DNA of 64,000 nucleotides from Rhodospirillaceae bacterium SYSU D60007 (GTDB taxonomy: Bacteria > Pseudomonadota > Alphaproteobacteria > Reyranellales > Reyranellaceae): NCBI GenBank assembly GCA_003574685.1, contig QOCQ01000006.1, forward strand, positions 1 through 64,000, read 5' to 3'. Positions 32,882 to 57,105 of this stretch are shown piece after piece (within the stretch, counting starts at the first letter, position 1; every line of letters begins with the position of its first letter). A program made the position numbers and the translations under genes. The notes beneath the pieces were generated by a model. It did not search any database and was not told the origin of the DNA. It worked only from the letters and a program-made list of their open reading frames with translations.

Positions 32882-34153
32882 CTACATATCGGAACTGCCG
32901 GTGATCAAACGGGCGCCGGACTGGAACGTGATGTACGACCACGTCCAGTCCATGAGCACGATCAGCCGGTTGCGGAAGCCGGCCAGGAACATGATGTGCA
33001 CCAGTCCCCACAGCAGCCACGCAAACATGCCGCCAAAGCGGAAACGCGAGAAGAGATGCGCTACGGCGTGATTGCGCCCAATGGTAGCCATGGCGCCCCA
33101 GTCCCGATAGACGAAGCGCGGCGCCGGCGAGGACCCTCTTATCCGGGCGCCGATCACATCCGCAACGTAGCGGCCCTGTTGTTTGGCGACGGGAGCCAAC
33201 CCCGGATAAGGGTGGCCCGCAGGGTCCAGCGCCAGCGCGGTGTCGCCAACTACAAAAATTTCCGGATGGCCGGGGAGGGACAGATCGGGCCCGACCTTCA
33301 CACGGCCAGCGCGATCGGCCTCTGCTTTCAGCCACTTCGCTGCGGACGAAGCCCGCACACCCGCAGCCCAGATGGTGGTGGCGGCCGGGACACGTTCATC
33401 GCCGACGATGACGCCTTCGGCATCGACCGCGGAAACCGGGGTGCCAAGGCGGACCTCGACACCAAGACGCTGCAGCGAGCGGAACGCACGCGCGGAGAGC
33501 GATTCGGGAAAGCTCGGCAGCACGCGGGGCCCCGCCTCGACCAGCAGGATGCGTGCAGCCCGCGGATCAATCTCGCGAAAATCGCGCACCAGGGCCCGGC
33601 GCGCCAACTCGGCGATCGCCCCGGCCATTTCGACTCCGGTAGGACCGCCACCGACGATCACGAAGTTCAGCAGGCGGCGGCGCCTGGCGGGATCGGCTTC
33701 CGTCTCGGCCAGCTCGAAGGCGGTCAGGATGCGGCGGCGAATTGCCGTTGCATCATCAATCTTCTTCAGGCCGGGCGCCCAAGGTTCCCAGTCGTCATGG
33801 CCGAAGTAGGAATGCCGGACACCGGTCGCGATGATCAGGAAGTCGTACGGTATCTCGTGCTCATCTGCCACGACAACGCGCCGCTCGCGGTCCACACCAG
33901 TAACGCGGCCCATCAGCACGCGCGTATTGGCGGCGTTGCGCAGAATGCTGCGGATGGGCATGGCGATCTGCGCTGGCGACAGCCCGGCGGTGGCCACCTG
34001 GTACAGCAGAGGCTGGAACAGATGGTAGTTACGGCGGTCGATCACCGTTACATCCACCGGCAAACGTGCCAGCCGCTGCGCCGCGGTCAGCCCGCCGAAG
34101 CCGGCACCGATGATGACGATGCGCGGCCGGCGCGCTGATGCCTGATCCGTCAG
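32882..34153 (-). CDS. ndh: type II NADH dehydrogenase (NDH-2), CTG start
   Basis: A 423-residue FAD-dependent NADH:quinone oxidoreductase. The first dinucleotide fold is IVIIGAGFGGLTAAQRLA, the second IVGGGPTGVEMAGAIAEL near residue 173; the C-terminal WLLWGLVHIMFLAGFRNR helix anchors it in the membrane. The in-frame sequence back to the last stop contains no ATG, GTG or TTG before the FAD motif. The only plausible start is CTG 34153, whose last bases overlap the amtB stop (CTGA), with GGAG 10 bases upstream. A TTG at 34063 would remove the FAD-binding motif. Linkage to glnK-amtB is unusual. Confidence 0.88.
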   Translation of the reverse strand: MTDQASARRPRIVIIGAGFGGLTAAQRLARLPVDVTVIDRRNYHLFQPLLYQVATAGLSPAQIAMPIRSILRNAANTRVLMGRVTGVDRERRVVVADEHEIPYDFLIIATGVRHSYFGHDDWEPWAPGLKKIDDATAIRRRILTAFELAETEADPARRRRLLNFVIVGGGPTGVEMAGAIAELARRALVRDFREIDPRAARILLVEAGPRVLPSFPESLSARAFRSLQRLGVEVRLGTPVSAVDAEGVIVGDERVPAATTIWAAGVRASSAAKWLKAEADRAGRVKVGPDLSLPGHPEIFVVGDTALALDPAGHPYPGLAPVAKQQGRYVADVIGARIRGSSPAPRFVYRDWGAMATIGRNHAVAHLFSRFRFGGMFAWLLWGLVHIMFLAGFRNRLIVLMDWTWSYITFQSGARLITGSSDM

Positions 34154-35463
34154 TGGACGGTTTCTCCGTGCAGGTTGATGTCGAGGCCTTCGATCTCCTG
34201 CTCTGGTGTGACACGCAGGCCGATGGTGACGTCAATGATCTTGAGGATGACCCAGGTGCCCGCGGCGCAGAGCAGCACGGTGCAGGCGATGCCGTAAAGC
34301 TGTGTCAGCACCTGCTGGCCATTGCCTTCCAGCAATCCGCGGATGTCGGGACCGGCAATGGCGCTGCTGGCAAAGATGCCGGCCGCCACGGTGCCGATGA
34401 ACCCGCCGACGCCGTGCACGCCAAAGACATCGAGCGAATCGTCGTAGCCCATGCGCCGCTTGAAGGTCGTGGAGGCGTAGAAGCACGCCAGGCCGGCCAC
34501 GGCACCGATGATCAAGGCGGCACTGATGTCGACGTAGCCGGATGCCGGGGTGATCGATCCCAAACCGGCCACCGCGCCGGAGACGAAACCAAGCACGCTC
34601 GGCTTGCCCACCACCATCCACTCGGCGAACATCCATGCCAGCGCCGCCGTCGCCGCCGCAATGTGTGTGACCGCGATGGCCATGCCGGCGCGCCCGTCCG
34701 CGGCCACGGCTGACCCGCCGTTGAAGCCGAACCAGCCGACCCATAGCAGCGATACGCCGATGACGGTCAGCACGAGGTTGTGCGGCGCCATGTTCTCGGT
34801 GGGGTAGCCACGCCGGGGGCCCAGCACCAGCGCCAGCACCAGCGCGGCGACGCCGGCATTGATGTGCACCACGATCCCACCGGCGAAGTCGAGCACCCCC
34901 TCTTTCTGCAGAAAGCCGCCGCCCCAGACCCAGTGCGCGATGGGGCAATAGATCAGCAGCAGCCACAGCGCCATGAACCAGAGGGTGGCGGAGAACTTGA
35001 TGCGGTCGGCGGCCGCGCCGATGACCAGGGCCGGCGTGATGGCGGCAAAGGTGAGCTGGAACATCATGAACACGTTCTCGGGCACCGTCTTCGCCGCATC
35101 GTGCACGCCATCAAGCGCCAGGCCGGCCATGAAGAAGCGCGAGAGGTCGCCGATGATGCCGCTGCCCGGCGTGAAGGCGAGGCTGTAGCCGATGACGACC
35201 CACAGCACTGATACCAGCGCCACCGTCGCGAGGGTTTGCGCCGTCGTCGCCAGCACGTTCTTCTTGCGCACCATGCCGGCATAGAAGAGCGCCAGGCCCG
35301 GAATTGACATCAGCAGCACAAGCGCTGTCGCCACGATCATCCAGGCCGTATCGCCGCTGTTGATGGCGGGCTTGCCATCGGCGGCGAGCGCAGCGGAAGG
35401 CAGGATCGCCAGCAGGCACGCGGCCGGGGCCGGCCGCCGGGCATGCGACAGGAATGCGGTCAT
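34150..35463 (-). CDS. amtB: AmtB ammonium transporter, copy 2
   Basis: A 437-residue ammonium channel with a signal peptide (ending LAADGKP) and eleven membrane helices. GDTAWM at the start of the mature part, FYAGMVRKKNVL, the ITPALVIGAAADRI and DDSLDVFGVHGVGGFIGT (pore histidine) motifs and the C-terminal GLDINLHGETVH tail, which contacts GlnK, are present. ATG 35463 is used; the frame is open upstream into glnK. It follows glnK by 25 bases and its stop overlaps the start of the NADH dehydrogenase. Confidence 0.93.
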   Translation of the reverse strand: MTAFLSHARRPAPAACLLAILPSAALAADGKPAINSGDTAWMIVATALVLLMSIPGLALFYAGMVRKKNVLATTAQTLATVALVSVLWVVIGYSLAFTPGSGIIGDLSRFFMAGLALDGVHDAAKTVPENVFMMFQLTFAAITPALVIGAAADRIKFSATLWFMALWLLLIYCPIAHWVWGGGFLQKEGVLDFAGGIVVHINAGVAALVLALVLGPRRGYPTENMAPHNLVLTVIGVSLLWVGWFGFNGGSAVAADGRAGMAIAVTHIAAATAALAWMFAEWMVVGKPSVLGFVSGAVAGLGSITPASGYVDISAALIIGAVAGLACFYASTTFKRRMGYDDSLDVFGVHGVGGFIGTVAAGIFASSAIAGPDIRGLLEGNGQQVLTQLYGIACTVLLCAAGTWVILKIIDVTIGLRVTPEQEIEGLDINLHGETVH

Positions 35464-35488
35464 CGCGGAAATCTCCCCCCGGATTCGT

Positions 35489-35932
<444 letters not shown>

Positions 35933-35973
35933 TCAGGTGCCCGGTTTTCAGGCAATCAGCCGCCAATCCGTAC

Positions 35974-36007
35974 AAAAAGGCCCGGTACCAGAAGCGGTAC
36001 CGGGCCT
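35974..36007 (-). terminator. strong rho-independent terminator after amtB copy 1
   Basis: A perfect 12-bp stem (AGGCCCGGTACC with GGTACCGGGCCT) around a 6-base loop, followed on the minus strand by five T residues. It lies 130 bases after the stop of the upstream amtB (36141), separating the two glnK-amtB units so that each needs its own promoter. Confidence 0.85.
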
Positions 36008-36140
36008 CGTGAGGTGCCGCCGGACGTGCGAGGGCCGGCGGCGGAGGGAACTCTTGAATCTTTCGGCCCCCTCCGCCCCTCCCGGCAGATGCCGGTGAGG
36101 GGCGGATGCCGCAGGCGGCGGCCAGGGGCGGCGGTGGGCC

Positions 36141-37478
36141 TCAGTGCACGGTTTCGCCGTGCAGGTTGATGTCGAGACCCTCGATCTCCTGCTCCTGGTC
36201 AACGCGCAGGCCGATGACCACGTCGATGATTTTCAGGAGCACGAAGGTGGCGATGGCGCACCAGGCGATGGTGGCGAGCGTTCCCCAGATCTGGGTCAGC
36301 ACCTGGCCGGAGTTGCCGTCGATCAGGCCGACCGCGTCCTCGCCGCCCTTGATCGCCCTGGTCGCGAACACGCCGGTGAGAATGGCGCCGACGAACCCGC
36401 CGACACCATGGATGCCGAAGACATCCAGCGAGTCGTCATAGCCCATCATGTTCTTCAGCGACGTCGCCGCCCAGAAGCACACCAGCCCGGCAACGAGGCC
36501 GATGATCAGCGCGCCTGTGGGGTTCACGAAACCAGCCGCCGGCGTGATCGCGACGAGGCCGGCCACGGCGCCCGAAATGATGCCCAGCACGGACGGCTTG
36601 GCGCGGGTCGCCCATTCGGCAAACATCCAGGCCAGCGCTGCCCCCGCCGTGGCGATCTGCGTCACCGCCATCGCCATGCCGGCATTGGCCGAGGCGGCAA
36701 CCGCCGAGCCGGCGTTGAAGCCGAACCAGCCCACCCACAGCAGCGAGGCGCCGATCACGCTGTAGACGAGGTTGTGCGGCGAGAGGTTTTCCGCGCCGTA
36801 ACCCTTGCGCTTGCCCAGCACCAGCGCACACACGAGGCCCGCGACACCGGAATTGATGTGCACCACGGTGCCGCCGGCGAAATCGAGCACGCCGAGCCCG
36901 CCGAGGAAGCCGCCACCCCATACCCAGTGGGCGATCGGCGCATAGACCACCAGCAGCCACAGCCCCATGAACCACATCATCGCCGAGAACTTCATGCGCT
37001 CGGCGAAGGCGCCGCAAATCAGCGCCGGCGTGATGATGGCGAAGGTCATCTGGAAAGTGACGAAGACCGATTCGGGGATCGTCTTCGCCAGATCGCTGAT
37101 GCTCTCGAGCGTAACGTTGCGCAGGAAAAAGTTGGACAGATCGCCGATCACCTGGTTGCCGGCGCCGAACGCGAGGCTGTAGCCCGCGACCATCCACAGT
37201 ACTGTCATGAGGCAGCAGACCGCAAAGCTCTGCATGACGGTCGCCAGCACGTTCTTGCGGCGTACCATGCCGCCATAGAACAGCGCCAGGCCGGGGATGG
37301 TCATCATCAGCACCAGCGCGGTCGAGGTCAGCATCCAGGCCGTGTCCCCCGTGTCGAGCTTCGGTGCCGGCGGCGCTGCAGGCGGTGTCTGCTGTGCGAA
37401 GGCTGTCGCCGAACAGAGCGCGGTGAACGCAACTCCGGACGCGGCCAGCGCCAGGCCACGAATCTTTTGCATGGTCAT
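36141..37478 (-). CDS. amtB: AmtB ammonium transporter, copy 1
   Basis: A 445-residue ammonium channel, about two thirds identical by eye to copy 2, with the same signal peptide type (ending AFAQQ), GDTAWML, FYGGMVRRKNVL, DDSLDVFGIHGVGGFVGA and GLDINLHGETVH tail. It lies 21 bases after glnK copy 1. ATG 37478 or 37472. A strong terminator ends the unit downstream. Confidence 0.94.
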   Translation of the reverse strand: MTMQKIRGLALAASGVAFTALCSATAFAQQTPPAAPPAPKLDTGDTAWMLTSTALVLMMTIPGLALFYGGMVRRKNVLATVMQSFAVCCLMTVLWMVAGYSLAFGAGNQVIGDLSNFFLRNVTLESISDLAKTIPESVFVTFQMTFAIITPALICGAFAERMKFSAMMWFMGLWLLVVYAPIAHWVWGGGFLGGLGVLDFAGGTVVHINSGVAGLVCALVLGKRKGYGAENLSPHNLVYSVIGASLLWVGWFGFNAGSAVAASANAGMAMAVTQIATAGAALAWMFAEWATRAKPSVLGIISGAVAGLVAITPAAGFVNPTGALIIGLVAGLVCFWAATSLKNMMGYDDSLDVFGIHGVGGFVGAILTGVFATRAIKGGEDAVGLIDGNSGQVLTQIWGTLATIAWCAIATFVLLKIIDVVIGLRVDQEQEIEGLDINLHGETVH

Positions 37479-37499
37479 CCTTGTTGTCCCCTGTTTTCC

Positions 37500-37841
<342 letters not shown>

Positions 37842-37900
37842 CTATTCCCCATGCACGCGTCGGCAAGCAGTTTCGACCGCTGACCTTCCGCAAAGGCCCC

Positions 37901-37997: not shown

Positions 37998-39308
37998 ATG
38001 AGCGGTGAGCAAACCGCACAGGACGAGACGAAGGCCGCGCATATGGCGGACGTGGCCATTGTCGGCGCCGGGCTGATCGGCGCGAGCCTTGCGGCCGCGT
38101 TGGGATCGGCCGGGCTGGGCGTTGTTCTGATCGACCGGCTGCCGGTGTCAGCGCAGCTCGCGGCAACGTTCGATGGACGTACGACGGCGGTGGCCCGCAG
38201 TTCCCGCCAGGCGCTGGAGGCCATCGGCGTCTGGGGCCGGATCGCCGCTCACGCCGCACCCATCCTCGACATCCGCATTTCCGATGCACGGCTTGATCCG
38301 TCGGGCGGGCCAGCGCCCACATCCCGGCTGCACCTGCATTTCGACCATCGCGAGGCACAGCGGCGCGGCGGGCCGGCGGCGCCCATGGGCCATATCGTAG
38401 AGAACCGTCATCTCCGGGCCGCCCTGTTCGAGGCGCTGGAAACACTGCCGGCGGTAAAGATATTCGCGCCAGCCGAGGCTGTGGAGGCGGTACGCGACGA
38501 GGGCGGCGTGCGGATCAGGCTTGCCGACGGGCGCATCATCAGGGCGGCATTGCTGGTGTCGGCCGAAGGCCGCGGCGGTCGCCTCCATGAAGAGGCTGGT
38601 ATCCGGATTCGGCGCACGGGCTATGGCCAGACCGCGATTGTGGTCACGGCGGAGCACGCACTGCCGCATCTCGGCGTGGCGCAGGAGAAGTTTCTGCCGA
38701 CCGGTCCCTTTGCCATTCTGCCGATGACCGATGATCCCCTGTCCGGTGCGCATCGCTCCTCGATCGTCTGGACCGAACGGGACGACCTCGTTCCGGCGCT
38801 GCTGCGTCTTCCCGACTCCGACTTCCAGGCCGAGTTCGCCCGGCGGTTCGGCGAACATCTCGGGGCCGTGAAGGCGATAGGCCCGCGGTTCTCCTACCCC
38901 TTGTCGGTTCAGACGGCCGAGCGGCTCGCGGCGCTGCGTCTGGCGCTGGTGGGCGACGCCGCGCATGGCATTCACCCGATTGCCGGGCAAGGCTGGAATC
39001 TGGGCCTTCGGGACGCCGCAGCGCTGGCCGAGGTTCTGGTCGACAGCCACCGGCTTGGCCTCGATATCGGCCATGCATCGGTGCTGGCACAGTACGAACG
39101 CTGGCGACGGGTGGACAGCCTGTCGATGATCGCGGTCACCGACGGGCTCAACCGCCTGTTCTCCAACGACCTTGCGCCGGTGCGTCTGGTCCGCGATCTC
39201 GGCCTGGCGGCGGTCAACCGCATGCCGCCGCTGCGCCGGTTCTTCATCCAGCACGCCATGGGCCTGCTGGGCGACCTGCCGCGTCTTCTCCGGGGTGAAC
39301 CGCTTTAG
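37998..39308 (+). CDS. UbiH/VisC-type FAD monooxygenase
   Basis: A 436-residue flavoprotein hydroxylase. The FAD fold is VAIVGAGLIGASLAAALG near residue 18; the C-terminal GDAAHGIHPIAGQGWNLGLRDAAALAE is the aromatic hydroxylase signature of UbiH/UbiF/VisC. ATG 37998 has an ideal AAGGAGG site. Ubiquinone ring hydroxylation is the default role. However it lies 5 bases from, and convergent with, a methyltransferase that ends a type III PKS operon, and a flavin hydroxylase, a methyltransferase and a type III PKS are exactly the SrsCBA set for phenolic lipids in Streptomyces, so a role in tailoring a PKS product is possible. Confidence 0.85.
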   Translation: MSGEQTAQDETKAAHMADVAIVGAGLIGASLAAALGSAGLGVVLIDRLPVSAQLAATFDGRTTAVARSSRQALEAIGVWGRIAAHAAPILDIRISDARLDPSGGPAPTSRLHLHFDHREAQRRGGPAAPMGHIVENRHLRAALFEALETLPAVKIFAPAEAVEAVRDEGGVRIRLADGRIIRAALLVSAEGRGGRLHEEAGIRIRRTGYGQTAIVVTAEHALPHLGVAQEKFLPTGPFAILPMTDDPLSGAHRSSIVWTERDDLVPALLRLPDSDFQAEFARRFGEHLGAVKAIGPRFSYPLSVQTAERLAALRLALVGDAAHGIHPIAGQGWNLGLRDAAALAEVLVDSHRLGLDIGHASVLAQYERWRRVDSLSMIAVTDGLNRLFSNDLAPVRLVRDLGLAAVNRMPPLRRFFIQHAMGLLGDLPRLLRGEPL

Positions 39309-39313
39309 TCTCG

Positions 39314-39817
39314 CTATCGTAACCGTGCGCCCAGGGCTGCATTCTCAAGGCGGATCCGGTGGCGGAGCAGCAGCGCATTCAGCACGGACCAGATGAGTGC
39401 CACGTGCCAGGCGCCGAAGGCGAGTGGCAGGAGGGCGATCTCACCGACTACGATCCAGTAGTTGGGATGACGCATCCAGCGATAGGCCCCGCGGCGCACC
39501 AGCGGCGCACCATCCAGGGTGATGATGCGGGTCGTCCAGAAAGACCCGAGACTGGCCATGACCCAGAGCCTCAGAACCTGAAGCACCGCGAAGATGGCAA
39601 GAAGCCCCCACGACGGCTCGGTTGATCGCGGGACAGTGAGCAGGATGGCTGCGAGCCACGAGGCGTGCAGCACGACGAACAGCGGATAATGGCTGGCGCC
39701 GATTTCACGTCCGCCTCTTGAAAGCAGCCGGCGCGTATTACGAGCCGCGATGGCAAGTTCCGCGAGGCGTTGCAGCGCTACCAGCCCGAGCGTCCATTCA
39801 AGAGGTGTCACAGCCAT
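39314..39817 (-). CDS. isoprenylcysteine carboxyl methyltransferase-like protein
   Basis: A 167-residue integral membrane methyltransferase of the ICMT/PEMT-like family: four to five helices and the C-terminal signature RGAYRWMRHPNYWIVVGEIALLPL, with NALLLRHRIRLENAAL at the end. In Bacillus and Streptomyces, small proteins of this family (BpsB, SrsB) sit beside type III PKS genes and O-methylate alkylpyrones or alkylresorcinols. Here it is third after PKS and a TPR gene on the same strand, which supports that role. Confidence 0.8.
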   Translation of the reverse strand: MAVTPLEWTLGLVALQRLAELAIAARNTRRLLSRGGREIGASHYPLFVVLHASWLAAILLTVPRSTEPSWGLLAIFAVLQVLRLWVMASLGSFWTTRIITLDGAPLVRRGAYRWMRHPNYWIVVGEIALLPLAFGAWHVALIWSVLNALLLRHRIRLENAALGARLR

Positions 39818-39843
39818 GACAACGGCAAGCAGCGGTTGATGGT

Positions 39844-40359
39844 TCAGTTCGATGCGCGGGGCTTGATTCCGCGTTTGTAGTTGGCGATGGCTGCCTTCAG
39901 CTCGCGATGTTCCTTGCAGCCGAAGGTGCAGAGCTGGTCGAGCCGCGAGAGATGCTCCTCGGCCCGCTGCGGCTGGTCGAGCATCAGGTAGGCCTCGCCA
40001 ATGTATTCGTGCGCGCCCAGATGCCTGGGATCCAGTGACAACGCCTTCTGGTAATGCTGCAGCGAGCCGGCGGGATCGCCCGATTTGCGCGTCGCGTATC
40101 CCAGCAGGTTCCAGGCTTCCGGGTTGTTAGGCTCGGCGGCGATCACGCGGTTCAGCCAGCCGATCGCGTTGGCGTACTGATTGTGATGGAGCGCTGCCTT
40201 GGCGTTCTCGAAGTCGGGGTTTGCCGGCCGTGCCGGCACCGAGCGCGTCGATGGCTGGTCCGATGAACCGCCGGCAGCCATGGCCGGCGCGGTTGCCAGC
40301 GCAGAAACCGTCGCCAACAGAGCCATTGCTGACAGGCCGGACTTGATGATGCAAGACAT
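39844..40359 (-). CDS. periplasmic TPR-repeat protein
   Basis: A 171-residue protein with a signal peptide (residues 1-29, ending AMAAG) and two to three tetratricopeptide repeats: NAIGWLNRVIAAEPNNPEAWNLLG and SLQHYQKALSLDPRHLGAHEYIGEAYL. Two cysteines (LCTFGC) near the C-terminus could form a disulfide or bind a cofactor. ATG 40359 chosen (40371 also possible). It lies between the PKS and methyltransferase genes on the same strand, suggesting an adaptor or unrelated passenger. Confidence 0.7.
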   Translation of the reverse strand: MSCIIKSGLSAMALLATVSALATAPAMAAGGSSDQPSTRSVPARPANPDFENAKAALHHNQYANAIGWLNRVIAAEPNNPEAWNLLGYATRKSGDPAGSLQHYQKALSLDPRHLGAHEYIGEAYLMLDQPQRAEEHLSRLDQLCTFGCKEHRELKAAIANYKRGIKPRASN

Positions 40360-40389
40360 GTGTCCCTCCATACCCAGAAGAATTGGTTG

Positions 40390-41445
40390 TTATGCGGCCT
40401 GCAGCGTCAGGAACGATCCGGTGAAGCCCGGTCCCAGCGCTGACATGAGATGATGGCCGCGAAGGCCCCGCTGCAGCGCCCTATCGAGCACGAACATCAC
40501 GGTCGCGGCTGACATGTTGCCGTAGTCGCGCAGCACGGCGCGGGCGTCGACCATGCCGCCGGTCTGAAGCCCGAAGACATCCTCCAGCGCGTCGAGCACC
40601 TTGGCGCCGCCGGGATGGGCAATGAAGCCGTCGATATCGGCCAGCCGAAGGCCGCGGGGTTCCAGATATGCCTCGGCTGCCGGGCGCAGCCTCTCGCGCA
40701 CCAGCGTGGGGATATCGCGCGAGAAGAGTACGGAAAGCCCGTCCTCGGCGACATCCCATCCCATGACATCCAGCGTACCCGGCCAGCGTCGCTCGCCGGC
40801 ATGCAGAATGGCGGGATTGTCGTTTGCCGCCTCCTGGGCGCGCACCACCGCAGCGGCGGCGCCATCGCCAAACAAGGCCGTGGCAATGATGTTGGCCTTG
40901 CGCCGATCACCGCTGCGGAAGGTCAGTGTGCAGAGCTCGACGACGAGAAACAGGACGTTCGTTCCCGGTTCGGCGCGCGCCAGCCTGGAGGCGGCACCGA
41001 GACCGGTCACGCCACCGGCGCATCCCAGGCCGAAAATGGGCAGACGCCCGACATCACTGCGGAACGGCAGGCGTTCCATCAGCAGCGCGTCGAGGCTGGG
41101 TGTGGCGATGCCGGTCGAGCACACCGTGACGATCTGGTCGATTTCCGCAATGGTGAGGCCGGCATCGGCGACGGCACGCAGCGCGGCCGTCTCCAGCAGC
41201 GCCGGTGCGTGCCTCAGAAAGGCATCGTTGCGCAGCTTCCAGTCGATCGGCCGCTGATACCACTCGAGCGGTTCGCAGAGATAGCGGCTTTCAATGCCGG
41301 TGTTCAGGAATGCCGGCAGCAGGCGCTCGACATCAACGCCATTGGAGCCGAAATAGGCTCCGGCTGCCTTCATCAGCTCATGCTGCGGCAGGATATGCGC
41401 GGGAGTCGCGGTGGCCAGCGACAGAAGGCGGACGAGGGCGGTCAT
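40390..41445 (-). CDS. type III polyketide synthase
   Basis: A 351-residue chalcone/stilbene synthase-like enzyme. The catalytic triad is C142 (GLGCAGG), H277 (IAHPGG) and N310 (RDYGNMSAAT), all in the expected places. Type III PKSs extend an acyl-CoA starter with malonyl-CoA and cyclise it to a resorcinol or pyrone. ATG 41445 is used over 41469. Its likely partners are the TPR protein and the membrane methyltransferase downstream; the SARP-hydrolase regulator starts 248 bases away in the opposite direction. Confidence 0.9.
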   Translation of the reverse strand: MTALVRLLSLATATPAHILPQHELMKAAGAYFGSNGVDVERLLPAFLNTGIESRYLCEPLEWYQRPIDWKLRNDAFLRHAPALLETAALRAVADAGLTIAEIDQIVTVCSTGIATPSLDALLMERLPFRSDVGRLPIFGLGCAGGVTGLGAASRLARAEPGTNVLFLVVELCTLTFRSGDRRKANIIATALFGDGAAAAVVRAQEAANDNPAILHAGERRWPGTLDVMGWDVAEDGLSVLFSRDIPTLVRERLRPAAEAYLEPRGLRLADIDGFIAHPGGAKVLDALEDVFGLQTGGMVDARAVLRDYGNMSAATVMFVLDRALQRGLRGHHLMSALGPGFTGSFLTLQAA

Positions 41446-41693
41446 GGCGATCCAACGGCTGCGGGCCATTGTATCGCGCGGGATGCGGCGGTCGGGCGTT
41501 CACGTTGTCGGGAAACCACAGCTCCTCCTCTCACCGCCTGCCCGGCGGGGTGCACCCCACGATAACCAACACAGCGCAACCTTGTTTCTTCCTTCGCCTC
41601 TCGCCGGGAGGCCCCGCGGCGTGCAACAAAGTTCTGGCAGCAGCAGCGTACCTTCACATAATGGCCCACGGCGCCGGAGCGCGGAGCTTGGTG

Positions 41694-43307
41694 ATGCTGG
41701 CGATACGGCTTCTGGGCGACATGGAGGTGCTGCGGGGTTCCGAGCGGCTGGAGCTGCCGCGTTCGCGCAAGACGCGGGCCCTGCTGGCATATCTTGTGAC
41801 GACGGGGCGGCCGCATCGCCGCGAACGGCTGTGCGAGCTGTTGTGGGATGTGCCGGACGACCCGCGCGGGGCGCTGCGCTGGAGTCTGAGCCGCATCCGG
41901 GCCCTGACCCACGATCCGGAACGGCCAATCTTCATCACCGAGCGCAATACGATCCAGTTCGACCCGGAAAGCGCCAGCGTTGATCTGGTGTCGCTGCGGG
42001 CTGGTCTTGGCAAGCTGGACAGTGCTCCCGTGGAGCACCTCATCAAGGCGACCGCTGCGTTCCGGGGCACCTTCCTGGAGGGTCTTGAGCTGCCGGAGTG
42101 TCACGAGTTCCGGTCATGGTATGTGGCCGAACGGGAGGACGCGCGAGTCCTGCACGCGCGCATTCTGACGGCGCTGGTTGATCGCCTTGCGACGACACCC
42201 GAAGCGGCACTGCCACATGCGCGCAAGCTGGCCCAGGTGGATCCACAAAACGAACTGGCCTGGAGCCGCCTCGTACGGCTGTTGGCCGCGGCTGGCCGTA
42301 TGAGGGAGGCACGCGAGCAGTACGAAACTGCCGCCGATGCGATGAAGGCCGCAGGTGGACCCAGGGGGCCGTTGCTGGCCGCATGGCGCGAGGTCAGCAG
42401 TGCGGGGGAGGCCAAGGCCGTGACGCCGGTGGCTGCCGCGCCATCGCCGCCGGCACACTCGCCCATACGGCAGGAGATCCGATTCTGCGTCGCGGATGAC
42501 GGCGTGCGGATTGCTTACGCAACAGCCGGGGAAGGGTCCCCGCTGGTGAAGCCCGCCAACTGGATGACCCATCTGGAATACGACTGGGAAAGCCCGGTGT
42601 GGCGCCACTGGATTCGCGAGATGGCGCGCGGCCACCGGCTGATCCGCTATGACGAGCGCGCCAACGGGCTTTCCGACTGGGATGCGCCGAACCTCACCTT
42701 CGAGACATTCGTGCGCGATCTGGAAGCGGTGGTCGATGCCGCGGGTCTCGAACGCTTTGCCATGCTCGGCGTGTCGCAGGGCTGCGCCATCGCCATCGCC
42801 TACGCCACGCGGCATCCGGAGCGGGTCAGCCGTCTGGTGCTCTATGGCGGCTACGCCCAGGGCTGGGCCCTTCGCGCGCCCGACGACGTGGCGCGACGTC
42901 GCGCGCTTGGCGTGCTGATGGAACTCGGCTGGGGGCAGGACAATCCGGCCTTTCGCCAGGTCTTCACCTCGCTGTTCATTCCCGACGGCAGCGCCGAACA
43001 GATCCAGTGGTTCAACGATCTTCAGCGCATGACCATATCGCCGCGTAACGCGGTGCGCCTGAACGAGGTGTTCGGCGGCATCGACATTCGGGAGCTGCTG
43101 CCGCAGGTTCGGACGCCAACGCTGGTATTGCATTGCCGCAACGACAACGTGGTGCCGTTCGACCAGGGCCGGCTGCTGGCAACGACCATTCCCGGCGCCC
43201 GCTTCGTTCCGCTGGAAAGCCGCAACCACATCCTGCTCGAAAGCGAGCCGGCATGGGAACGCTTCGTCAGCGAACTGAGCGCCTTCCTCGCCGCCGACGA
43301 AGCCTGA
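41694..43307 (+). CDS. SARP/BTAD regulator fused to alpha/beta hydrolase
   Basis: A 537-residue fusion. Residues 1-100 are an OmpR-like winged helix (IRLLGDMEVLRG, then SRKTRALLAYLV and WSLSRIR), residues ~105-225 a bacterial transcriptional activation domain of helical repeats, the SARP/AfsR N-terminal layout. After a proline/alanine linker (~235-255) a full alpha/beta hydrolase follows, with nucleophile S361 (GVSQG), acid D484 (RNDN) and H512 (RNHI), so it looks catalytically intact. GGAG lies 7 bases before ATG 41694; ATG 41661 is possible, longer extension is unlikely. It is divergent from the type III PKS and overlaps the MFS gene, so it may sense or process the PKS product. Confidence 0.85.
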   Translation: MLAIRLLGDMEVLRGSERLELPRSRKTRALLAYLVTTGRPHRRERLCELLWDVPDDPRGALRWSLSRIRALTHDPERPIFITERNTIQFDPESASVDLVSLRAGLGKLDSAPVEHLIKATAAFRGTFLEGLELPECHEFRSWYVAEREDARVLHARILTALVDRLATTPEAALPHARKLAQVDPQNELAWSRLVRLLAAAGRMREAREQYETAADAMKAAGGPRGPLLAAWREVSSAGEAKAVTPVAAAPSPPAHSPIRQEIRFCVADDGVRIAYATAGEGSPLVKPANWMTHLEYDWESPVWRHWIREMARGHRLIRYDERANGLSDWDAPNLTFETFVRDLEAVVDAAGLERFAMLGVSQGCAIAIAYATRHPERVSRLVLYGGYAQGWALRAPDDVARRRALGVLMELGWGQDNPAFRQVFTSLFIPDGSAEQIQWFNDLQRMTISPRNAVRLNEVFGGIDIRELLPQVRTPTLVLHCRNDNVVPFDQGRLLATTIPGARFVPLESRNHILLESEPAWERFVSELSAFLAADEA

Positions 43308-44884
43308 TGGCGGAATACCCGGATGGTCTTCATAGAGAAATGACAGTTCCGCTTGCCACGAGCCGGTCCGCGCGGTTCGCGACGTGGTGCGGGTTTGCGG
43401 CGATGTGTCTGGGCATGTTCATGGCGATCCTGGACATTCAGGTCGTCGCGACATCCCTGCCCGCCATCCAGGCGGCGCTCGGCATCGCGCCGGAGCAGAT
43501 GAGCTGGATCCAGACCGCCTATCTGATTGCCGAGGTGATCGCGATCCCCCTTACGGGATGGTTCACGCGCGTGCTGGGGATGCGGGGCCTGTTCATCGCC
43601 GCCGTGTCGATATTCACGCTGGCATCGGTCGGCTGCGCGTGGAGCGACGACTTTACCGCCCTGATCGCCTGGCGTGTGGTGCAGGGTTTTGCCGGCGGCA
43701 CGCTGATCCCGGCGGTGTTCTCGGCCGTATTCCTGCTCTTTCCCGCGCGCGGCCAGGCGCTGGCGACGACCATCGCGGGGGCGATCGCGGTCCTGGCGCC
43801 CACGCTTGGTCCGGTAGTCGGTGGCTGGATCACGCAGACCTGGTCCTGGCACTGGCTGTTTCTGATCAATGTTGCGCCCGGCATTGCGGCTGCCGCGGTC
43901 GGCGCACGCTTGCTGGTGCGCGACCGGAGCGATTTCCGTCATGTGCGCGTGCTGGACTGGCTCTCGCTGCTGCTGCTGGCGACTGCTCTGGGCACGCTGG
44001 AGGTTGCCCTCAAGGAAGCCCCCGGGCGCGGATGGGCGTCGCCGCTGACGCTGGGTCTGTTGCTGCTGTGCAGCTCCGCAGGTCTGGCGTTTGTGTTGCG
44101 CACGTTGCGGGCGGCGTGGCCGGTGGTCGAGCTGCGCGCACTGGCTGACCGCGACTTCGCGATCGGCTGCTGGCTCAGCTTTGTGCTGGGTACGGGGTTG
44201 TATGGCTCGGTTTATCTGATGCCCGTGTTCCTGGGATATGTGCGCGAGCATGGGCCGCTGCGCATCGGCGAGATCATGCTGGTGACCGGCGTCATGCAGC
44301 TTCTGACCTCACCGCTCGCCGTGCTTCTGGAACGCCGTACTGACGCGCGCTGGCTGACGGCGGCGGGTTTCACGCTCTTCGCCGCCGGTCTGGGATTGAG
44401 CTGGTTCCAGACATGGGAAACCGATTTCGACGAGATGTTCTGGCCGCAGGTGATCCGCGGCAGCGCCATCATGTTCTGCCTGCTGCCGCCGACGCGGCTG
44501 GCGCTCGGCCACCTGCCGCCCGCCCGTGTGCCTGACGCCAGCGGGCTCTTCAACCTGATGCGCAATCTCGGCGGCGCGATCGGCCTGGCGCTGATTGATA
44601 CCGTGATCTATGGCCGCGCCGCCAGGCATGCAAAGGACCTGGCGAGCAGGCTCGCGTCAGGTGATGTCGAGGCCGCCCGCTTCATCGGGCTGCCGCCAGA
44701 ACTGCTTGCGGCTGGGATGTCGGGGAGGATGGATGCCACTGCCGATACGCTAGTGCGGTCGCTTCTGGAACGCGCCGGCTTCGTTGTTGCCGTCAATGAG
44801 GCGTGGGCCATGCTGGCGGCATTTACCCTGACCGGACTTCTCGTCCTGCCGTTCGTGACCCGGCGACACGCGACGGACCGCTAG
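43307..44884 (+). CDS. DHA2-family MFS efflux transporter
   Basis: A 525-residue major facilitator with about 14 membrane helices. Motif C-like GPVVGGW and the MFMAILDIQVVATSLPAIQ opening and IQTAYLIAEVIAIPLTGW segment are typical of the DHA2 (EmrB/QacA) group of drug/proton antiporters. ATG 43307 overlaps the regulator stop by one base (TGATG), so it is cotranslated with it; ATG 43340 is an alternative. In context it could export the PKS product or a toxic intermediate. Confidence 0.9.
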   Translation: MAEYPDGLHREMTVPLATSRSARFATWCGFAAMCLGMFMAILDIQVVATSLPAIQAALGIAPEQMSWIQTAYLIAEVIAIPLTGWFTRVLGMRGLFIAAVSIFTLASVGCAWSDDFTALIAWRVVQGFAGGTLIPAVFSAVFLLFPARGQALATTIAGAIAVLAPTLGPVVGGWITQTWSWHWLFLINVAPGIAAAAVGARLLVRDRSDFRHVRVLDWLSLLLLATALGTLEVALKEAPGRGWASPLTLGLLLLCSSAGLAFVLRTLRAAWPVVELRALADRDFAIGCWLSFVLGTGLYGSVYLMPVFLGYVREHGPLRIGEIMLVTGVMQLLTSPLAVLLERRTDARWLTAAGFTLFAAGLGLSWFQTWETDFDEMFWPQVIRGSAIMFCLLPPTRLALGHLPPARVPDASGLFNLMRNLGGAIGLALIDTVIYGRAARHAKDLASRLASGDVEAARFIGLPPELLAAGMSGRMDATADTLVRSLLERAGFVVAVNEAWAMLAAFTLTGLLVLPFVTRRHATDR

Positions 44885-44890: not shown

Positions 44891-45391
44891 CTACGCCTTC
44901 AGCGCCAGCGACGGCGGGTTCTTCAATGTCTGATAGATCACGCAATAGCGTTCGGTGAGCTTGTAGAGCGTGGCAAGCTGCTCGGGCGTTGCATCGGTAT
45001 CGAGATCAAACGAAAGACGGATGTCGCGGAAGCCGACTGGCGCCGCCTTGTCGACCGCAAGCGTGCCGCGGAAGTCGAGATCGCCCTCGGCGTGCACCGT
45101 GCCCTTGCGGATGGCGATACCCAGCGACGTCGCAACGGCTTTCAGCGTCACGCCGGCACAGGCCGCAAGTGCCTCCAGTAGCATGTCGCCCGAACACGCT
45201 TGTGTGCCGTTGCCGCCTGTTGCCGGATGTAGCCCGGCCTCCACCAGGGCCCGCCCGGTATCGACCTTGCAGACGATGGCCGCGGAATCGAGCTCGCCTG
45301 TGGCATGCAGGGTGATGACGGCTGCCCCCGGCTGCTGCCGGTATTTCTCCTTCAGCGGCGCCTGCAGGGCACGGAGCTGGTCGGCGTTCAT
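44891..45391 (-). CDS. OsmC family protein
   Basis: A 166-residue OsmC/Ohr-like protein. The two redox-type cysteines are in QACSGDMLLEALAACAGVTL near residue 68 and ERYCVIYQTL near 149. The family reduces organic hydroperoxides through these cysteines; the length and the long N-terminal part suggest the OsmC subgroup rather than Ohr. ATG 45391 is used; the open frame reaches 45613 over the divergent hydrolase. Confidence 0.82.
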   Translation of the reverse strand: MNADQLRALQAPLKEKYRQQPGAAVITLHATGELDSAAIVCKVDTGRALVEAGLHPATGGNGTQACSGDMLLEALAACAGVTLKAVATSLGIAIRKGTVHAEGDLDFRGTLAVDKAAPVGFRDIRLSFDLDTDATPEQLATLYKLTERYCVIYQTLKNPPSLALKA

Positions 45392-46458: not shown

Positions 46459-49400
46459 CTAGGCAGCGACCTCGTTCGCGAGGCTGGCGCGGATGGAGGC
46501 CAGCGATGGCGGGCGGGCGATGGGCTGCAGCAGCTCCTTTCTCGCCTGCCACTCGGTCGCGGGGTCGAGCGCGGTGAGGAAACGGACTTCGCCGCCCGAC
46601 AGCAGGGCAACGGGAATACCATCGCGATAGAGCAGCCTGTTTCCCGTCAGCGCCGCGAGTTTCGGGCCGGGCGTCAGAATGCCCACGAGATTGAGCGGAT
46701 CGGCCCCGGAGACGGCGAGCCACTCCCCGGATGCCGCGCGCCGGCGTACGTCGCGCAAGGCGCCGATCGCCTCGGGCAGCGCAAACTGCTCGCCCGCGAA
46801 ACCTGCCACGAACCGCCCGCCGCGGATTTCGCCGCGGCTCTCCAGCCGGCGGTAGACGCGCAACAGGTCGCGCCACGGCGGCAGGAAGTCGGCCTCGCGT
46901 TCCAGCAGCCGCCAGAACACCGCGCCATAGCGGCGCAGCAATGTACGGGCCACATGCTCGACGTTGCCAGCTTCAGCGCTGGACCGGGCTTCCGCTGGCG
47001 GCTGCCGGCGGACCAGCGCCCAGCGGCCTGCGTCCTCGATGGCAAATGCGCCCCGCCGGCGCCGCCGTCCGCCGCTGCGGCGCTCGCTGGAGGGCACCAG
47101 CAGGGCGCGCAAGCCGCCAAAGCTGTCCGAGGTGACGAGGCCCAGGGCAACCAGCTCGCCCAGCGCCTCTTCGACCTGGGTCCGCAGCAGCCCGGTGCCG
47201 CTCACCAGCTCGTCGAGGAATGAAGCACCGTACGACCGGATGTGATCCAGCACCGCACGCGAGCGCGCGCCCGGCTGCACCTCATCGTCTTGCGGCGACA
47301 GCGATGTCCAGAGCGGCACATGGCGACGTTCAAGCAGCGTGATCGGCGTGGTGCGCACAGGCGACGCGCGCCCTTCGCCGCCGGCACGGCCGTTGCGCGG
47401 CCGCAGGCGGATCCAGGCGAGCTGGCCGGCAAGGCAGCGCTCGTCCAGCCACGCGGTCCTGTAGTCGGCAAGGCGCGCCGGCAGGATCTCGCTCTCCCAT
47501 GCCCCTGCGGCGGCCTCGAAGCCCTCGAGCTGGGCCACAATCGTGTCCAGCGCGCGCGGACCCTGCATGCGGGCATTGGCCGACACGCGCTGCCAGTCGA
47601 AGAGAAAGCGCAGGAAGTCCCGCGCCGCGACCGGCTCGATCTCGGCGCGCAGGCGGCGGATCGTGTAGCGATGAATGCGGCCCAGCAGCCGGCGCTCGCA
47701 CCACTGATCGGCATTGGCGCCCGGCATGAAGCGGCCGCGCATGGCGAAGCCTTCCATCTCCAGCGCCGCCAGCGCCGCAGCGATATCGGGCGGCGCGAGC
47801 CCCAGCGGCGCCGCCAGTGCCTCCTCGCTCACGGGGCCCAGCCCTTCGAGCCGGCCGCGGATGATCTCTACGAGCGCCTCATCGCATGACCAGGAATGCT
47901 CGCCCTGCCGCGCCGGTGCGCGGATCGCTGGCTGCGTCTCGATGCCCGGCCAGAGCGCCTCGAACTGGGCCACCCTTTCGGCCGCGACCCAGAGCGTGTC
48001 GCTGCCCACCGTCAGACGGCCCGCGCGTTTTTGCGCGGCGAGGTCGTTCAGCCAAGCCTGCCAGCCGGGCCCGGCCTGAGCTTCCGCGTCGGTCAGGAAG
48101 CCCAGCCACACCAGCGCATCGTGCAGCTCGTCAGCGTTGATGGCTTCGGGCCAGGCTTCCGCACGCACCCGCGCCACGGCATCGGCATCGAGGCGCCCGA
48201 GATCGGCGGCGTCTTCGGGCGACAGCCAGCGCCGCGCCATGACCGCCTGCGTGCGGCGCTCTTCCAGTGGCGCATCATCGAGGAAGGCGTAGGGCCGCGC
48301 GGACAGCACTTCGAGGGCAAGGGGTGAGGGCTGGGTCAGCTCGCACGTCACCACCTGGATCCTACCCTCTTGCAGCCCGGCAAGAAGACGTTCCAGTCCG
48401 TCGACGTCCATCCCTTCGGTGAGGCAATCGCGCAGCGCCTGTTGCACAAGGGGGTGATCCGGGATCTCGCGTTCTCCCGGCAGGTTCTCGGCGCAGGCAT
48501 TCTGGTCCGGGAACACGGCCCCCATGAGATCCTCGGCGCCCATGCGCGCAAGTTGCGGCGCCACCTTCTTGCCGCCGCGGAAGCGCGGCAGCGCCAGCGA
48601 AACACCGATGACCCAGCGCCAGCGCGTGGTGAACATGGGCGCGTCGAGTACGGCCTGCGTCAGCACCGTCCGCACGGAAGCCGGATGCAGATATCGCGCG
48701 ACCTCGTCCAGAGGGAAGCTGTGCGCCTCGGTCAGCGAGATGACGATATTGTCCTCGGTGGCTGCCGCCTGGAGCTCGAAATTGAACGTGCGGCAGAAGC
48801 GCTTGCGCAGCGCCAGCCCCCAGGCCCTGTTAAGCCGGCTGCCATAGGGAGAGTGCACGACAAGCTGCATGCCGCCGGCTTCGTCGAAGAAGCGTTCCAG
48901 CACGATGGTGTCCTGCGTCGGCAGGCAACCCAGCGCCGCGCGGCCGGCCTTGAGGTATTCAACAAGCTGCGCGGCGGCGGCGTGCACGATGCCGACTTCG
49001 TCGGCCAGCCACCGCAGGGCGCTTTCGCCGCCGGCGTCGCGCCGCAAGTGGCGCTCGATTTCGGTGCGCAGCCGCGAAACCGAGGCGGAGAGCTCGTCGC
49101 TGCGGCCCGGCGCCTCGCCCAGCCAGAACGGGATATTGGGCGCCTGTCCCTGCGCATCCTCGACCCGCACCACGCCGCGCTCGACCCGCTGGATGCGGTA
49201 GCTGTGGTTGCCGAGCTGGAAGACGTCGCCGGCCATGCTCTCGACGGCAAAATCCTCGTTGACCGAACCGATGACGTGGTTCTCCGGCTCCAGCAGCACC
49301 TGGTAATCGGCGTTGTCGGGAATGGTGCCGCCGGCGGTGAGCGCGGTCAGCCGCGCGCCGCGCCGCCCGCGCAGCAGCCGGTTCACCGCGTCATGGTGGA

Positions 49401-50820
49401 TCAGCGCGCCGCGGCGTCCGCGCCGCGTGCTGAAGCCCTCGGCCAGCATGTCAATGGCGGCATCGAAATCGGCGTGCGCGAGATTGCGATACGGCCAGGC
49501 GCGCCGCACCAGCCCATAGAGCGCATCCTCGTGCCATTCGCGTGCCGACACCTCGGCCACGATCTGCTGCGCCAGCACGTCGAGCGGCTGTTCGGGCACC
49601 GACAGGCGGTCAAGCTCGCCACGCCGCACGCTGTCGAGCAGCGCGGCGCATTCGACCAGCTCGTCGCGCGACAGCGGGAACAGGCGGCCCTTCGGTGTGC
49701 CGTCGACGGCATGGCCGGAACGGCCGACGCGCTGCAGGAAACTTGCGATCGATCGGGGCGAGCCCAGCTGGCAGACGAGATCGACATCGCCGATATCGAT
49801 GCCCAGTTCCAGCGAGGCGGTGGCGACCAGCGCCTTCAGCCTGCCATGCTTGAGCCGCTGTTCGGCATCGAAGCGCTGCTCCTTCGCGAGGCTGCCGTGA
49901 TGGGCCGTGACATGGCTTTCGCCCAGCAGCTCCGACAGCCGGCGCGTCACGCGCTCCGCGAGGCGCCGCGTATTGACGAAGATCAGCGTGGTGCGGTGCT
50001 GCTCGACCAGCGCCACCAGCCGGCGGTAGATCTGCTCCCACACCTCCATTGACATGACCGGCTCGAGCGGCGAGTCGGGCACTTCCAGCGCCAGGTCACG
50101 CGCGCGGTCGTGGCCCAGATCGACAATCTCGCAGTCGGGCGCGCCGAGAAACTGCGCCACCTTCTCGACCGGCCTTTGCGTCGCCGACAAGCCGATGCGC
50201 AGCAGGTGTCGGCCGCACAGCGCATCCAGCCGCTCCAGCGACAGCGCCAGATGGCTGCCGCGCTTGTTGGGCGCCAGCGCATGGATCTCATCGACGATGA
50301 CGGTGCGCGTCGTCGCCAGCATGCGCCGGCCGGACTCGGAGCCCAGCAGGATGTAAAGCGATTCCGGCGTCGTCACCACGATATGAGGCGGCCGGCGGCC
50401 CATGCTCTGGCGCTCGCCGGCGGGCGTGTCGCCGGTGCGCACCCAGGTGCGGATCGCGACTTCCGGCAGCCCGCGCGCTTTCAGCGCATCTGCGATGCCG
50501 GCCAGCGGGATCTCCAGATTGGCGTGGATGTCGTTGCTGAGCGCCTTGAGCGGCGACACATAGACGATCTGGGTTTCGTCCCGGAGTTCGCCCTCAAGGC
50601 GCTGCCGCACCAGATCATCAATGGCCGCCATGAACGCGGCCAGCGTCTTGCCTGACCCGGTCGGCGCCGCCACCAGCACCGGGCGGCCAGCCTTGATCGC
50701 CGGCCAGGCTTTCGCCTGCGCGACAGTCGGTGCCCGGAAACGGCCGGCGAACCAGGCGGCAACCGCGGGATGAAACAGCGAGCTCAAGGTCACGGCCGCG
50801 AAGATATGGGCGCCTTCCAC
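46459..50820 (-). CDS. lhr: Lhr-type SF2 DNA helicase
   Basis: A 1453-residue large helicase-related protein, full length. Walker A APTGSGKT at 52-59, DEIH box at 177-180, TTPESL near 150 and the motif VI arginines in QRVGRSGH are visible, followed by the winged-helix/Lhr core and the long C-terminal DUF/DNA-glycosylase-like half typical of the long Lhr form. Lhr unwinds 3'-tailed DNA and RNA-DNA hybrids and is linked to DNA repair. The usual ligase and phosphoesterase partners are not adjacent. Start 50820 assumed. Confidence 0.92.
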
Positions 50821-55888: not shown

Positions 55889-56677
55889 TCACGGCGCTGG
55901 CGCGGTCGAGCCTGGCCTCCCGCTTCGGTGTGCCGCGCTAGGAGCCAACGTTTGCACCTGCCCGACCGCCCGATGCAGATGGACAGAATGGGCTGCCCAT
56001 CGTTGGCAGAACGATGCCGCGCGATGTCGAGCCACTTGATCAGGGTTCAGAATAAAGAACGTTCGACAACTATAGCTGTTAGCCCTGATGGCAATGGCGC
56101 TGTTACCAAGCTGCTTCAGCCAGTGGTCCACCTCGGCATCGTGTCCACCCTTACGTCGAGTATTGTGATGATAGATCACTGCCACTCTGCCTTCAGCCAA
56201 AGCCTTGGCTTCTGACAGGGGAATCTGCTTACCAAAGGCCTTTCGACGTCGACGTCTGGGATCATCATCCACGAGACCATTGTCGGGATCCGCGAAGACA
56301 ATCTCCGCATCAGCGATGGCTGAACGAACTCGTTCGAACCAGCCAGCCCTCCAGCTTTCACGGCATCTCCAGGGCAATGTTGCCGACTGCAGCAATTCCC
56401 CGGAAAAGCTTCCATTTATCAGGCCGGTTTCTTGTAGGGCGCGAACCGAACGTATGCCCTTGATCACGCTGCGCATGCCGTCGAACAGATCAGGATCGAG
56501 ATGACGCCACTGAGAGGGGGCCTGTAGATAGGTAGTATGTTTTCCGTCGCCGTTGTGGTCTTCATTGGGATACAAATACCAAGCCACTCCCAGTTTCCGT
56601 CCCGCTGAGAGATGCCGAAGCAGAGCCAATTTGACGTAGTCGCCTATGTCGCCAGCGTATCTGTCCTGCAAGTCCAT
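55889..56677 (-). CDS. conserved hypothetical protein of accessory type
   Basis: About 262 residues from ATG 56677 (open to 56728). The N-terminus MDLQDRYAGDIGDYVKLALL and GVAWYLYPNEDHNGDGKHTTYL, then FADPDNGLVDDD and VAVIYHHNTRRKGGH, look like a conserved enzyme family seen scattered in bacterial genomes, possibly a Rossmann-type or methyltransferase-related fold. I cannot name it. Base composition is lower in GC than its neighbours, consistent with transfer. The gene ends close to a family D repeat. Confidence 0.6.
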   Translation of the reverse strand: MDLQDRYAGDIGDYVKLALLRHLSAGRKLGVAWYLYPNEDHNGDGKHTTYLQAPSQWRHLDPDLFDGMRSVIKGIRSVRALQETGLINGSFSGELLQSATLPWRCRESWRAGWFERVRSAIADAEIVFADPDNGLVDDDPRRRRRKAFGKQIPLSEAKALAEGRVAVIYHHNTRRKGGHDAEVDHWLKQLGNSAIAIRANSYSCRTFFILNPDQVARHRAASFCQRWAAHSVHLHRAVGQVQTLAPSAAHRSGRPGSTAPAP

Positions 56678-57083: not shown

Positions 57084-57105
57084 CGACGCTCCCCCTTACC
57101 GCCGT

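What the first reader, a model, noticed from the sequence alone, without database searches (positions are those of the whole stretch)
37998..44884. Candidate phenolic-lipid or alkylpyrone locus with type III PKS
A type III PKS (intact Cys142-His277-Asn310) shares a strand with a TPR protein and a membrane ICMT-like methyltransferase; a UbiH-type flavin hydroxylase gene converges 5 bases from that methyltransferase, and a SARP-like regulator plus MFS exporter are divergent from the PKS. PKS + ICMT-like methyltransferase + flavin hydroxylase is the same enzyme set as Streptomyces SrsABC and, in part, Bacillus BpsAB, but here it comes with an added TPR protein, a hydrolase-fused regulator and an exporter. 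The product and the grouping itself are inference.
Basis: partly seen in the sequence, partly recalled or inferred. Interest (0 to 1): 0.75.

Follow-up and report, generated by a model that had tools for sequence, protein, structure and literature searches.

The report
Methylated polyketide-lipid genes with exporter

Summary
The core is a two-gene unit, type III PKS then ICMT-like membrane methyltransferase: same strand, PKS first, in 109 of 109 related loci, median gap 0 bases. This is the BpsA-BpsB kind of operon. The DHA2/EmrB-type MFS gene looks like a genuine though optional partner: its close relatives lie beside the PKS in 26 of 27 family genomes, and in a 387-genome class sample all 14 genomes with one also have the PKS, 9 of them adjacent. 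The 'UbiH' gene is not a partner: it is the only Ubi-hydroxylase over the family cut-off in its genome, with one COQ7 elsewhere, is present in 26 of 30 PKS-less relatives, and is beside the PKS only in the window's genus. A UbiL+Coq7 ubiquinone pathway explains it. The TPR gene belongs to a family-wide protein and sits in the operon only in this genus; the SARP-hydrolase regulator is also genus-local. Likely product: an O-methylated alkylpyrone or alkylresorcinol, exported. Product, methylation and export are inferred, not shown.

The parts
   Evidence: Pfam Chal_sti_synt_N/C; nearest solved relative by sequence PKS11 of M. tuberculosis, E 3.9e-50; triad invariant in 106 of 106; only PF00195 match in its genome
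39314..39817 (-). ICMT-like membrane methyltransferase, core enzyme, probable O-methylation of the PKS product
   Evidence: Pfam ICMT 96.7 bits; far below the protein-S-isoprenylcysteine O-methyltransferase equivalog (19.3 of 160 bits); same strand and behind PKS in 109 of 109 loci
43307..44884 (+). DHA2/EmrB-type MFS transporter, probable dedicated exporter
   Evidence: TIGR00711 369.9 bits, cut-off 230.2; 26 of 27 close relatives in family genomes lie beside PKS-ICMT; in one clade with PKS-linked transporters
41694..43307 (+). SARP-like regulator fused to an alpha/beta hydrolase; probable local regulator, stop overlaps the probable MFS start (TGATG)
   Evidence: Pfam BTAD + Abhydrolase_1; beside PKS in 3 of 4 genomes of the genus; full-length paralogues unlinked to PKS; GVSQG and candidate Asp/His kept in 3 of 3 aligned
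39844..40371 (-). TPR protein (N-terminus looks like a signal peptide, by eye) sitting between PKS and ICMT, genus-specific position; probably not a pathway enzyme
   Evidence: TPR repeats; homologues in 68 of 75 family genomes; among 109 PKS loci found only in the genus and in L086
37968..39308 (+). UbiL-type ubiquinone hydroxylase: neighbour, NOT part of the PKS unit
   Evidence: TIGR01988 over cut-off, only one in genome; one COQ7 elsewhere; homologue in 68 of 75 family genomes
34150..37883 (-). two ammonium transporter genes and a P-II (glnK-type) gene: left flank of ubiL, also near ubiL in G004 and G012 where no PKS lies there
   Evidence: Pfam Ammonium_transp twice and P-II; G004 (L160) and G012 (L161)
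44912..45391 (-). OsmC-like gene, right flank of the block
   Evidence: Pfam OsmC; in G004 it lies about 6 kb after ubiL without PKS between

Best explanation
The locus is an alphaproteobacterial PKS-ICMT lipid operon with its exporter, placed in the window's genus between ubiL and osmC. The PKS takes a medium- or long-chain fatty acyl starter, extends it two or three times with malonyl (possibly methylmalonyl) units and closes the ring, most likely as an alkylpyrone and possibly as an alkylresorcinol or resorcylic acid. The membrane ICMT-like enzyme then methylates a ring hydroxyl, and the DHA2-type MFS protein moves the amphiphilic product out of the inner membrane. The SARP-hydrolase, whose stop overlaps the exporter's start, probably controls the divergent promoters. 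Shown here: gene content, order, conservation, co-occurrence, clade structure. Inferred: substrates, product, methylation site, export and regulation. The neighbouring flavin hydroxylase makes ubiquinone (inferred from distribution), and the TPR protein is a resident of another origin.
For: PKS and ICMT on the same strand, PKS first, in 109 of 109 loci (at least 3 of the 109 are second copies of a record). PKS nearest by sequence to the long-chain alkylpyrone synthase PKS11; triad and the Glu-x-Cys stretch invariant in 106 of 106. MFS: beside PKS in 26 of 27 family genomes that have it; all 14 class genomes with it, own included, have the PKS against 79 of 387 overall, 9 of 14 within 2 kb; one clade (99*) of 50 rows, 44 of them linked. 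The two-gene type III PKS operon bpsA-bpsB gives alkylpyrones in Bacillus (PMC5686519, passages). RpsA of the alphaproteobacterium Rhodospirillum centenum makes alkyl-dimethylpyrones/resorcylic acids (PMC6274091, passages). The hydroxylase is accounted for by UbiL+Coq7 (PMC5069965, passages).
Against: No product, expression or phenotype data. 19 of 45 PKS-bearing family genomes have no such MFS beside the PKS (some of these matches end at a contig end), so the exporter is optional. Five of the 14 class genomes carry the MFS away from the PKS, and G056 carries one without a PKS match. The best NCBIfam model for the PKS is DpgA (156.6 bits, cut-off 425), so another product class is not excluded. 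The ICMT's substrate is by analogy only.
Confidence: 0.68

Rival explanations
1. One reading: a five- or six-gene SrsABC-like pathway in which the UbiH-type flavin hydroxylase oxidises the methylated resorcinol and the TPR protein is an added component.
For: Physical adjacency, 5 bases between the stops, and hydroxylase-ICMT-TPR-PKS order in all four genomes of the genus (in G073 the PKS is split over two contigs).
Against: The hydroxylase is the only gene over the TIGR01988 cut-off in a 99.8% complete genome, is present in 26 of 30 PKS-less family genomes, is convergent rather than co-directional, and is found near PKS in only the five loci of this genus (three genomes) among 109. TPR homologues are family-wide and unlinked outside the genus.
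Confidence: 0.04
2. PKS-ICMT is the lipid pair, but the MFS is an unrelated drug pump that sits nearby by chance or shares regulation only.
For: DHA2/EmrB pumps are common (five over the cut-off in this genome, this one included); 19 of 45 PKS-bearing family genomes lack it beside the PKS.
Against: One clade of transporters tracks the PKS in several families and in both orientations; 14 of 14 co-occurrence in the class sample.
Confidence: 0.2
3. The PKS makes a non-lipid aromatic (DpgA-like dihydroxyphenylacetyl, chalcone-like or short-chain pyrone) product.
For: Best NCBIfam model is DpgA, well under cut-off.
Against: PKS11 is the nearest solved relative by sequence; the constant partner is a membrane methyltransferase, which suits a lipophilic substrate (inference). 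Partner genes of DpgA were not searched for.
Confidence: 0.12

Closest known systems
bpsA-bpsB operon of Bacillus (alkylpyrone synthase + methyltransferase; PMC5686519, passages read)
   Same: Two-gene type III PKS operon with a methyltransferase; that BpsB is ICMT-like is recalled, not tested
   Different: Other phylum; here an MFS exporter and, in this genus, a TPR gene between the two and a SARP-hydrolase regulator
RpsA of Rhodospirillum centenum (PMC6274091, passages read)
   Same: Alphaproteobacterial type III PKS; alkylpyrone/resorcylic acid chemistry is what one would expect here
   Different: Its sequence and neighbourhood were not available here, so identity and linkage to an ICMT are untested
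SrsABC of Streptomyces griseus (mentions in PMC8086630 and PMC5916927, passages; original papers not seen)
   Same: Type III PKS plus methyltransferase
   Different: The third enzyme, a stand-alone hydroxylase, is missing: the neighbouring hydroxylase is UbiL-type and unlinked elsewhere
Hierridin-type operons, methyltransferase + FAD-dependent oxidoreductase + type III PKS, of cyanobacteria and Planctomycetota (PMC8086630, PMC10896814, passages)
   Same: PKS operon with methyltransferase and a lipid product
   Different: No FAD oxidoreductase belongs to the unit here; gene order differs
Cyanobacterial type III PKS clusters with MFS, RND or ABC transporters (PMC8086630, passages)
   Same: Transporter genes beside a type III PKS, read there as a sign of an extracellular role
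   Different: Different cluster content; no PKS-ICMT pair described in the passages seen
PKS11 of Mycobacterium tuberculosis (4JAO/4JAP)
   Same: Nearest solved sequence, E 3.9e-50; same Val-Glu-Leu-Cys stretch
   Different: No transporter in the M. tuberculosis cluster compared in PMC8086630 (passage)
UbiL + Coq7 ubiquinone pathway of Rhodospirillum rubrum (PMC5069965, passages read)
   Same: One Ubi-type flavin hydroxylase over cut-off and one COQ7 in the genome
   Different: Explains only the neighbouring hydroxylase

Membership tests
Type III PKS (chalcone synthase superfamily) | Both Pfam domains and Cys-His-Asn triad | tested here: met
BpsA-BpsB-type operon | type III PKS followed by an ICMT-like membrane methyltransferase | tested here: met
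   109 of 109 loci, median gap 0; in the window a TPR gene lies between (576 bases)
BpsA-BpsB-type operon | orthology of the proteins to BpsA/BpsB | not tested
   no Bacillus sequence was fetched
BpsA-BpsB-type operon | alkylpyrone product and its O-methylation | not testable with these tools
   needs enzyme assay or lipid analysis
SrsABC | dedicated flavin hydroxylase linked to the PKS | tested here: not met
Ubiquinone flavin hydroxylase (UbiL type) | Ubi-OHase subfamily score over cut-off | tested here: met
   TIGR01988 401 bits, cut-off 224.65; below the UbiH equivalog (354.2 of 392.2) and NF005599 (405 of 549) cut-offs
Ubiquinone flavin hydroxylase (UbiL type) | sole Ubi-OHase with a COQ7 in an alphaproteobacterial genome, as in R. 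rubrum | tested here: met
Ubiquinone flavin hydroxylase (UbiL type) | falls in the UbiL clade of a tree | not tested
Ubiquinone flavin hydroxylase (UbiL type) | ubiquinone defect on loss | not testable with these tools
   needs a mutant
DHA2 (EmrB) MFS exporters | TIGR00711 score over cut-off | tested here: met
   369.9 bits, cut-off 230.2
SARP regulators | winged-helix DNA-binding domain plus BTAD domain | tested here: inconclusive
   BTAD 25.6 bits over 22.1; no Pfam hit for a DNA-binding domain at 1e-3, N-terminal resemblance is by eye

The most novel reading that the evidence does not exclude
PKS-ICMT-MFS is a portable make-methylate-export module for a secreted polyketide lipid. A transporter subfamily has become specialised for it and has travelled with it between alphaproteobacterial lineages, so the lipid acts outside the inner membrane (signal, outer-envelope or cyst lipid) rather than as an inner-membrane component.
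Probability: 0.35. Interest if true: 0.5.

Novelty: new variant of a known kind. Interest (0 to 1): 0.36.

Why it matters
It removes a misleading SrsABC parallel and replaces it with a testable unit: one PKS, one methyltransferase, one exporter. The exporter clade gives a sequence handle for finding secreted polyketide lipids in Alphaproteobacteria. Transporters beside type III PKSs are in print for cyanobacteria (PMC8086630, passages); for PKS-ICMT operons of Alphaproteobacteria I found none in searches, which cover only an openly licensed library.

Tried and rejected
Rejected: SrsABC-like set (hydroxylase unlinked elsewhere and explained by ubiquinone); TPR as a conserved pathway member (family-wide, unlinked outside the genus, though L086 has a 112-bit TPR homologue upstream of its PKS); SARP-hydrolase as conserved partner (3 of 4 genus genomes; in G073 only about 360 bases separate MFS and PKS; full-length paralogues elsewhere in G072, G074, G058, the G058 one with one in-frame stop).

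Led nowhere: a first neighbour clustering was blurred by shadow reading frames and was redone (which still recognised ICMT in only 58 of 80 loci); a GC-based gene caller missed ICMT in several loci and tblastn was used for the counts instead. The ArsB Trp281/ArsC Gly284 rule for resorcinol against pyrone (PMC6274091 passage) was not applied because no Azotobacter sequence was at hand. An RHPNY count of 69 of 109 ICMTs was too strict: the HPNY core is seen in all but L022 and L053, whose ICMT is cut by the contig end. AU tests for g1+g3 and g1+g4 did not finish. A promoter scan gave one weak site between the divergent units, near chance. PMC12224551 concerns another BpsA (indigoidine) and PMC6159551 gave nothing on this pathway (passages). 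Structure prediction was not run; no tree of the hydroxylase was built.

Trees are 'quick' with SH-aLRT only, long branches flagged. L061 (170-bit MFS, 2.5 kb from the PKS) was called unlinked in the first MFS tree and left out of the second, as were L082 and the four own-genome paralogues; other duplicates (L032, L039, L220) were left out of both. In some searches only the best 3 and 5 candidates per genome were scored. The 480-bit line between transporter tiers was drawn after seeing the scores. Counts that combine searches were made by reading the tables.

Full report
Where it lies. The window is on a 5.3 Mb genome in 58 contigs, 99.8% complete. The nearest named relatives of its PKS are in Vineibacter terrae CC-CFT640 (84%) and Reyranella sp. 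CPCC 100927 (86%). So the organism is probably a Vineibacter-like member of the Reyranella group; the name is inference.

The genes. All six genes are open and carry the expected domains. On the minus strand PKS, TPR and ICMT follow each other with short gaps. On the plus strand the regulator and MFS probably share TGATG. The two units are divergent from about 41.47-41.69 kb.

Core pair. In 109 loci with a full PKS match (L002-L111 without L008; at least three are second copies of a record) ICMT is present in 109 of 109 and lies on the same strand downstream in 109 of 109, quartiles of the gap -6 and 11 bases, median 0. Only the window's genus has a large gap (559-674 bases, holding the TPR gene); L111 has 139. 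The loci include Acidobacteriota and Eremiobacterota MAGs. The rest of the neighbourhood varies: among the 80 named loci the commonest further clusters were a divergent membrane protein (22 loci), a helicase-like protein (20, label by eye) and the MFS (14, of which 11 co-oriented). The Cys-His-Asn triad is invariant in 106 of 106. Sequence search of the PDB puts PKS11, a long-chain alkylpyrone synthase, first (function from PMC6274091, passages). These facts make a BpsAB-type alkylpyrone or resorcinol operon the best reading; the product itself is inferred.

The hydroxylase. The gene scores 401 bits against TIGR01988 (cut-off 224.65), although it stays below the narrower UbiH and NF005599 cut-offs. 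In its own genome 14 stretches match TIGR01988 at E up to 0.001 but only this one is over the cut-off. One COQ7 gene is present. Pelosi et al. (PMC5069965, passages) concluded that R. rubrum uses just UbiL and Coq7 hydroxylases for ubiquinone; the same complement is found here. A homologue at E up to 1e-30 is found in 68 of 75 family genomes. Thirty of the 75 have no PKS match at E up to 1e-40 (one, G036, has a 33-residue fragment at a contig end), and 26 of these 30 have the hydroxylase; so do 42 of the 45 with PKS. Of these 42, the four of the window's genus have it beside the PKS block; in 37 of the other 38 the two are on different contigs and in one (G011) about 0.7 Mb apart. Draft contigs could hide some adjacency, but among the 109 PKS loci (many short or ending at a contig end) the hydroxylase appears only in the five of this genus. 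In G004 the ammonium transporter and P-II genes, one further gene, ubiL, and about 6 kb later osmC and the hydrolase after it keep the window's order, while PKS-ICMT-MFS is on another contig. In G012, which has no PKS match at that level, ubiL again lies one gene from the P-II and ammonium transporter genes. The PKS block therefore sits at a pre-existing ubiL-osmC site in the window's genus. The 6 kb that fill the interval in G004 have no match in the window, so the exact event is not resolved.

The TPR protein. Homologues at E up to 1e-12 are found in 68 of 75 family genomes and, outside the genus, on other contigs than the PKS or 1.4 Mb away (G011). G072 and G074 have two copies, one in the PKS operon and one elsewhere (58% and 60% identical to the window's). 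The window's genome has only the operon copy at that level (31.4 bits for the next). It may therefore do its family-wide job from inside the operon; that job is unknown.

The regulator. The SARP-hydrolase lies beside the PKS in G000, G072 and G074, not in G073, where MFS and PKS are about 360 bases apart. Paralogues of 53-60% identity over the full length lie elsewhere in G072 (two), G074 and G058. So it is one of a family of such fusions, recruited locally. The Ser of GVSQG and the candidate Asp/His are kept in the three aligned, so the hydrolase domain may be active or ligand-sensing (inference).

The exporter. Of 27 family genomes with a transporter scoring at least 437 bits, 26 have it beside the PKS; the exception, G056, has no PKS match at E up to 1e-40 and is 85% complete. 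Of the 45 PKS-bearing family genomes 19 do not show it beside the PKS. In a class sample of 387 genomes of at least 90% completeness, 14 have a transporter of at least 480 bits; all 14, own included, also have the PKS (79 of 387 overall), nine within 2 kb and five elsewhere. Leaving out the window's own, the naive hypergeometric chance is 4e-10; the 14 come from eight families, so it overstates independence. No listed transporter of the next tier (340-434 bits) lies within 30 kb of a listed PKS. In the tree of 69 transporters the PKS-linked ones fall in one clade of 50 rows (99*), 44 linked and six not, five of those six in PKS-bearing genomes. The own-genome DHA2 paralogues lie outside in the first tree.

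History. In the PKS tree the copies of the window's genus, of g3 and of g4, all one family, lie in different clades; holding them together is rejected (AU p 0.00027). So the PKS was not simply inherited within the family; transfer or loss of ancient copies are both possible.

Judgement. The finding is a sound observation with a wrong member and two local ones. The pathway is of a known kind; the exporter linkage is the modestly new part. Type III PKS clusters with MFS, RND or ABC transporters are described in cyanobacteria (PMC8086630, passages). I found no paper on an exporter for PKS-ICMT operons of Alphaproteobacteria in the searches made, in a library of openly licensed papers only. Acetobacteraceae type III PKSs have been noted before and guessed to make pyrones or resorcinols (PMC8776678, passages).

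Noticed in passing
window 6042-8282 (-): 746-aa protein with HNH endonuclease, ResIII/DEAD helicase and Helicase_C domains in a GC dip (0.549 in 6001-8000), about 1 kb from tRNA-Ala 9221-9296: possible mobile or defence gene.
   Followed up: no
window 56001-58000: Second GC dip (0.558); the 279-aa ORF 55889-56728 (-) has no Pfam match at 1e-6.
   Followed up: no
window 46459-50820 (-): 1453-aa Lhr-type large helicase.
   Followed up: no
G073:C491:4840-5946: A second, distant type III PKS match (35% identity) in a genome of the same genus.
   Followed up: no
L032-L111, about 1 kb upstream of PKS, opposite strand: A membrane protein family (looks like DUF502, from memory) is found in 22 of 80 loci, 21 of them within 3 kb of the PKS, always on the opposite strand.
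   Followed up: no
window 39844-40371: The PKS-operon TPR gene is the only close copy in this genome, while sister genomes G072 and G074 keep a second unlinked copy: possible replacement of a housekeeping gene by its operon-borne duplicate.
   Followed up: partly
L086:1898-2443: A TPR protein with about 110 bits to the window's TPR lies upstream of PKS-ICMT in a Rhodospirillales MAG.
   Followed up: no
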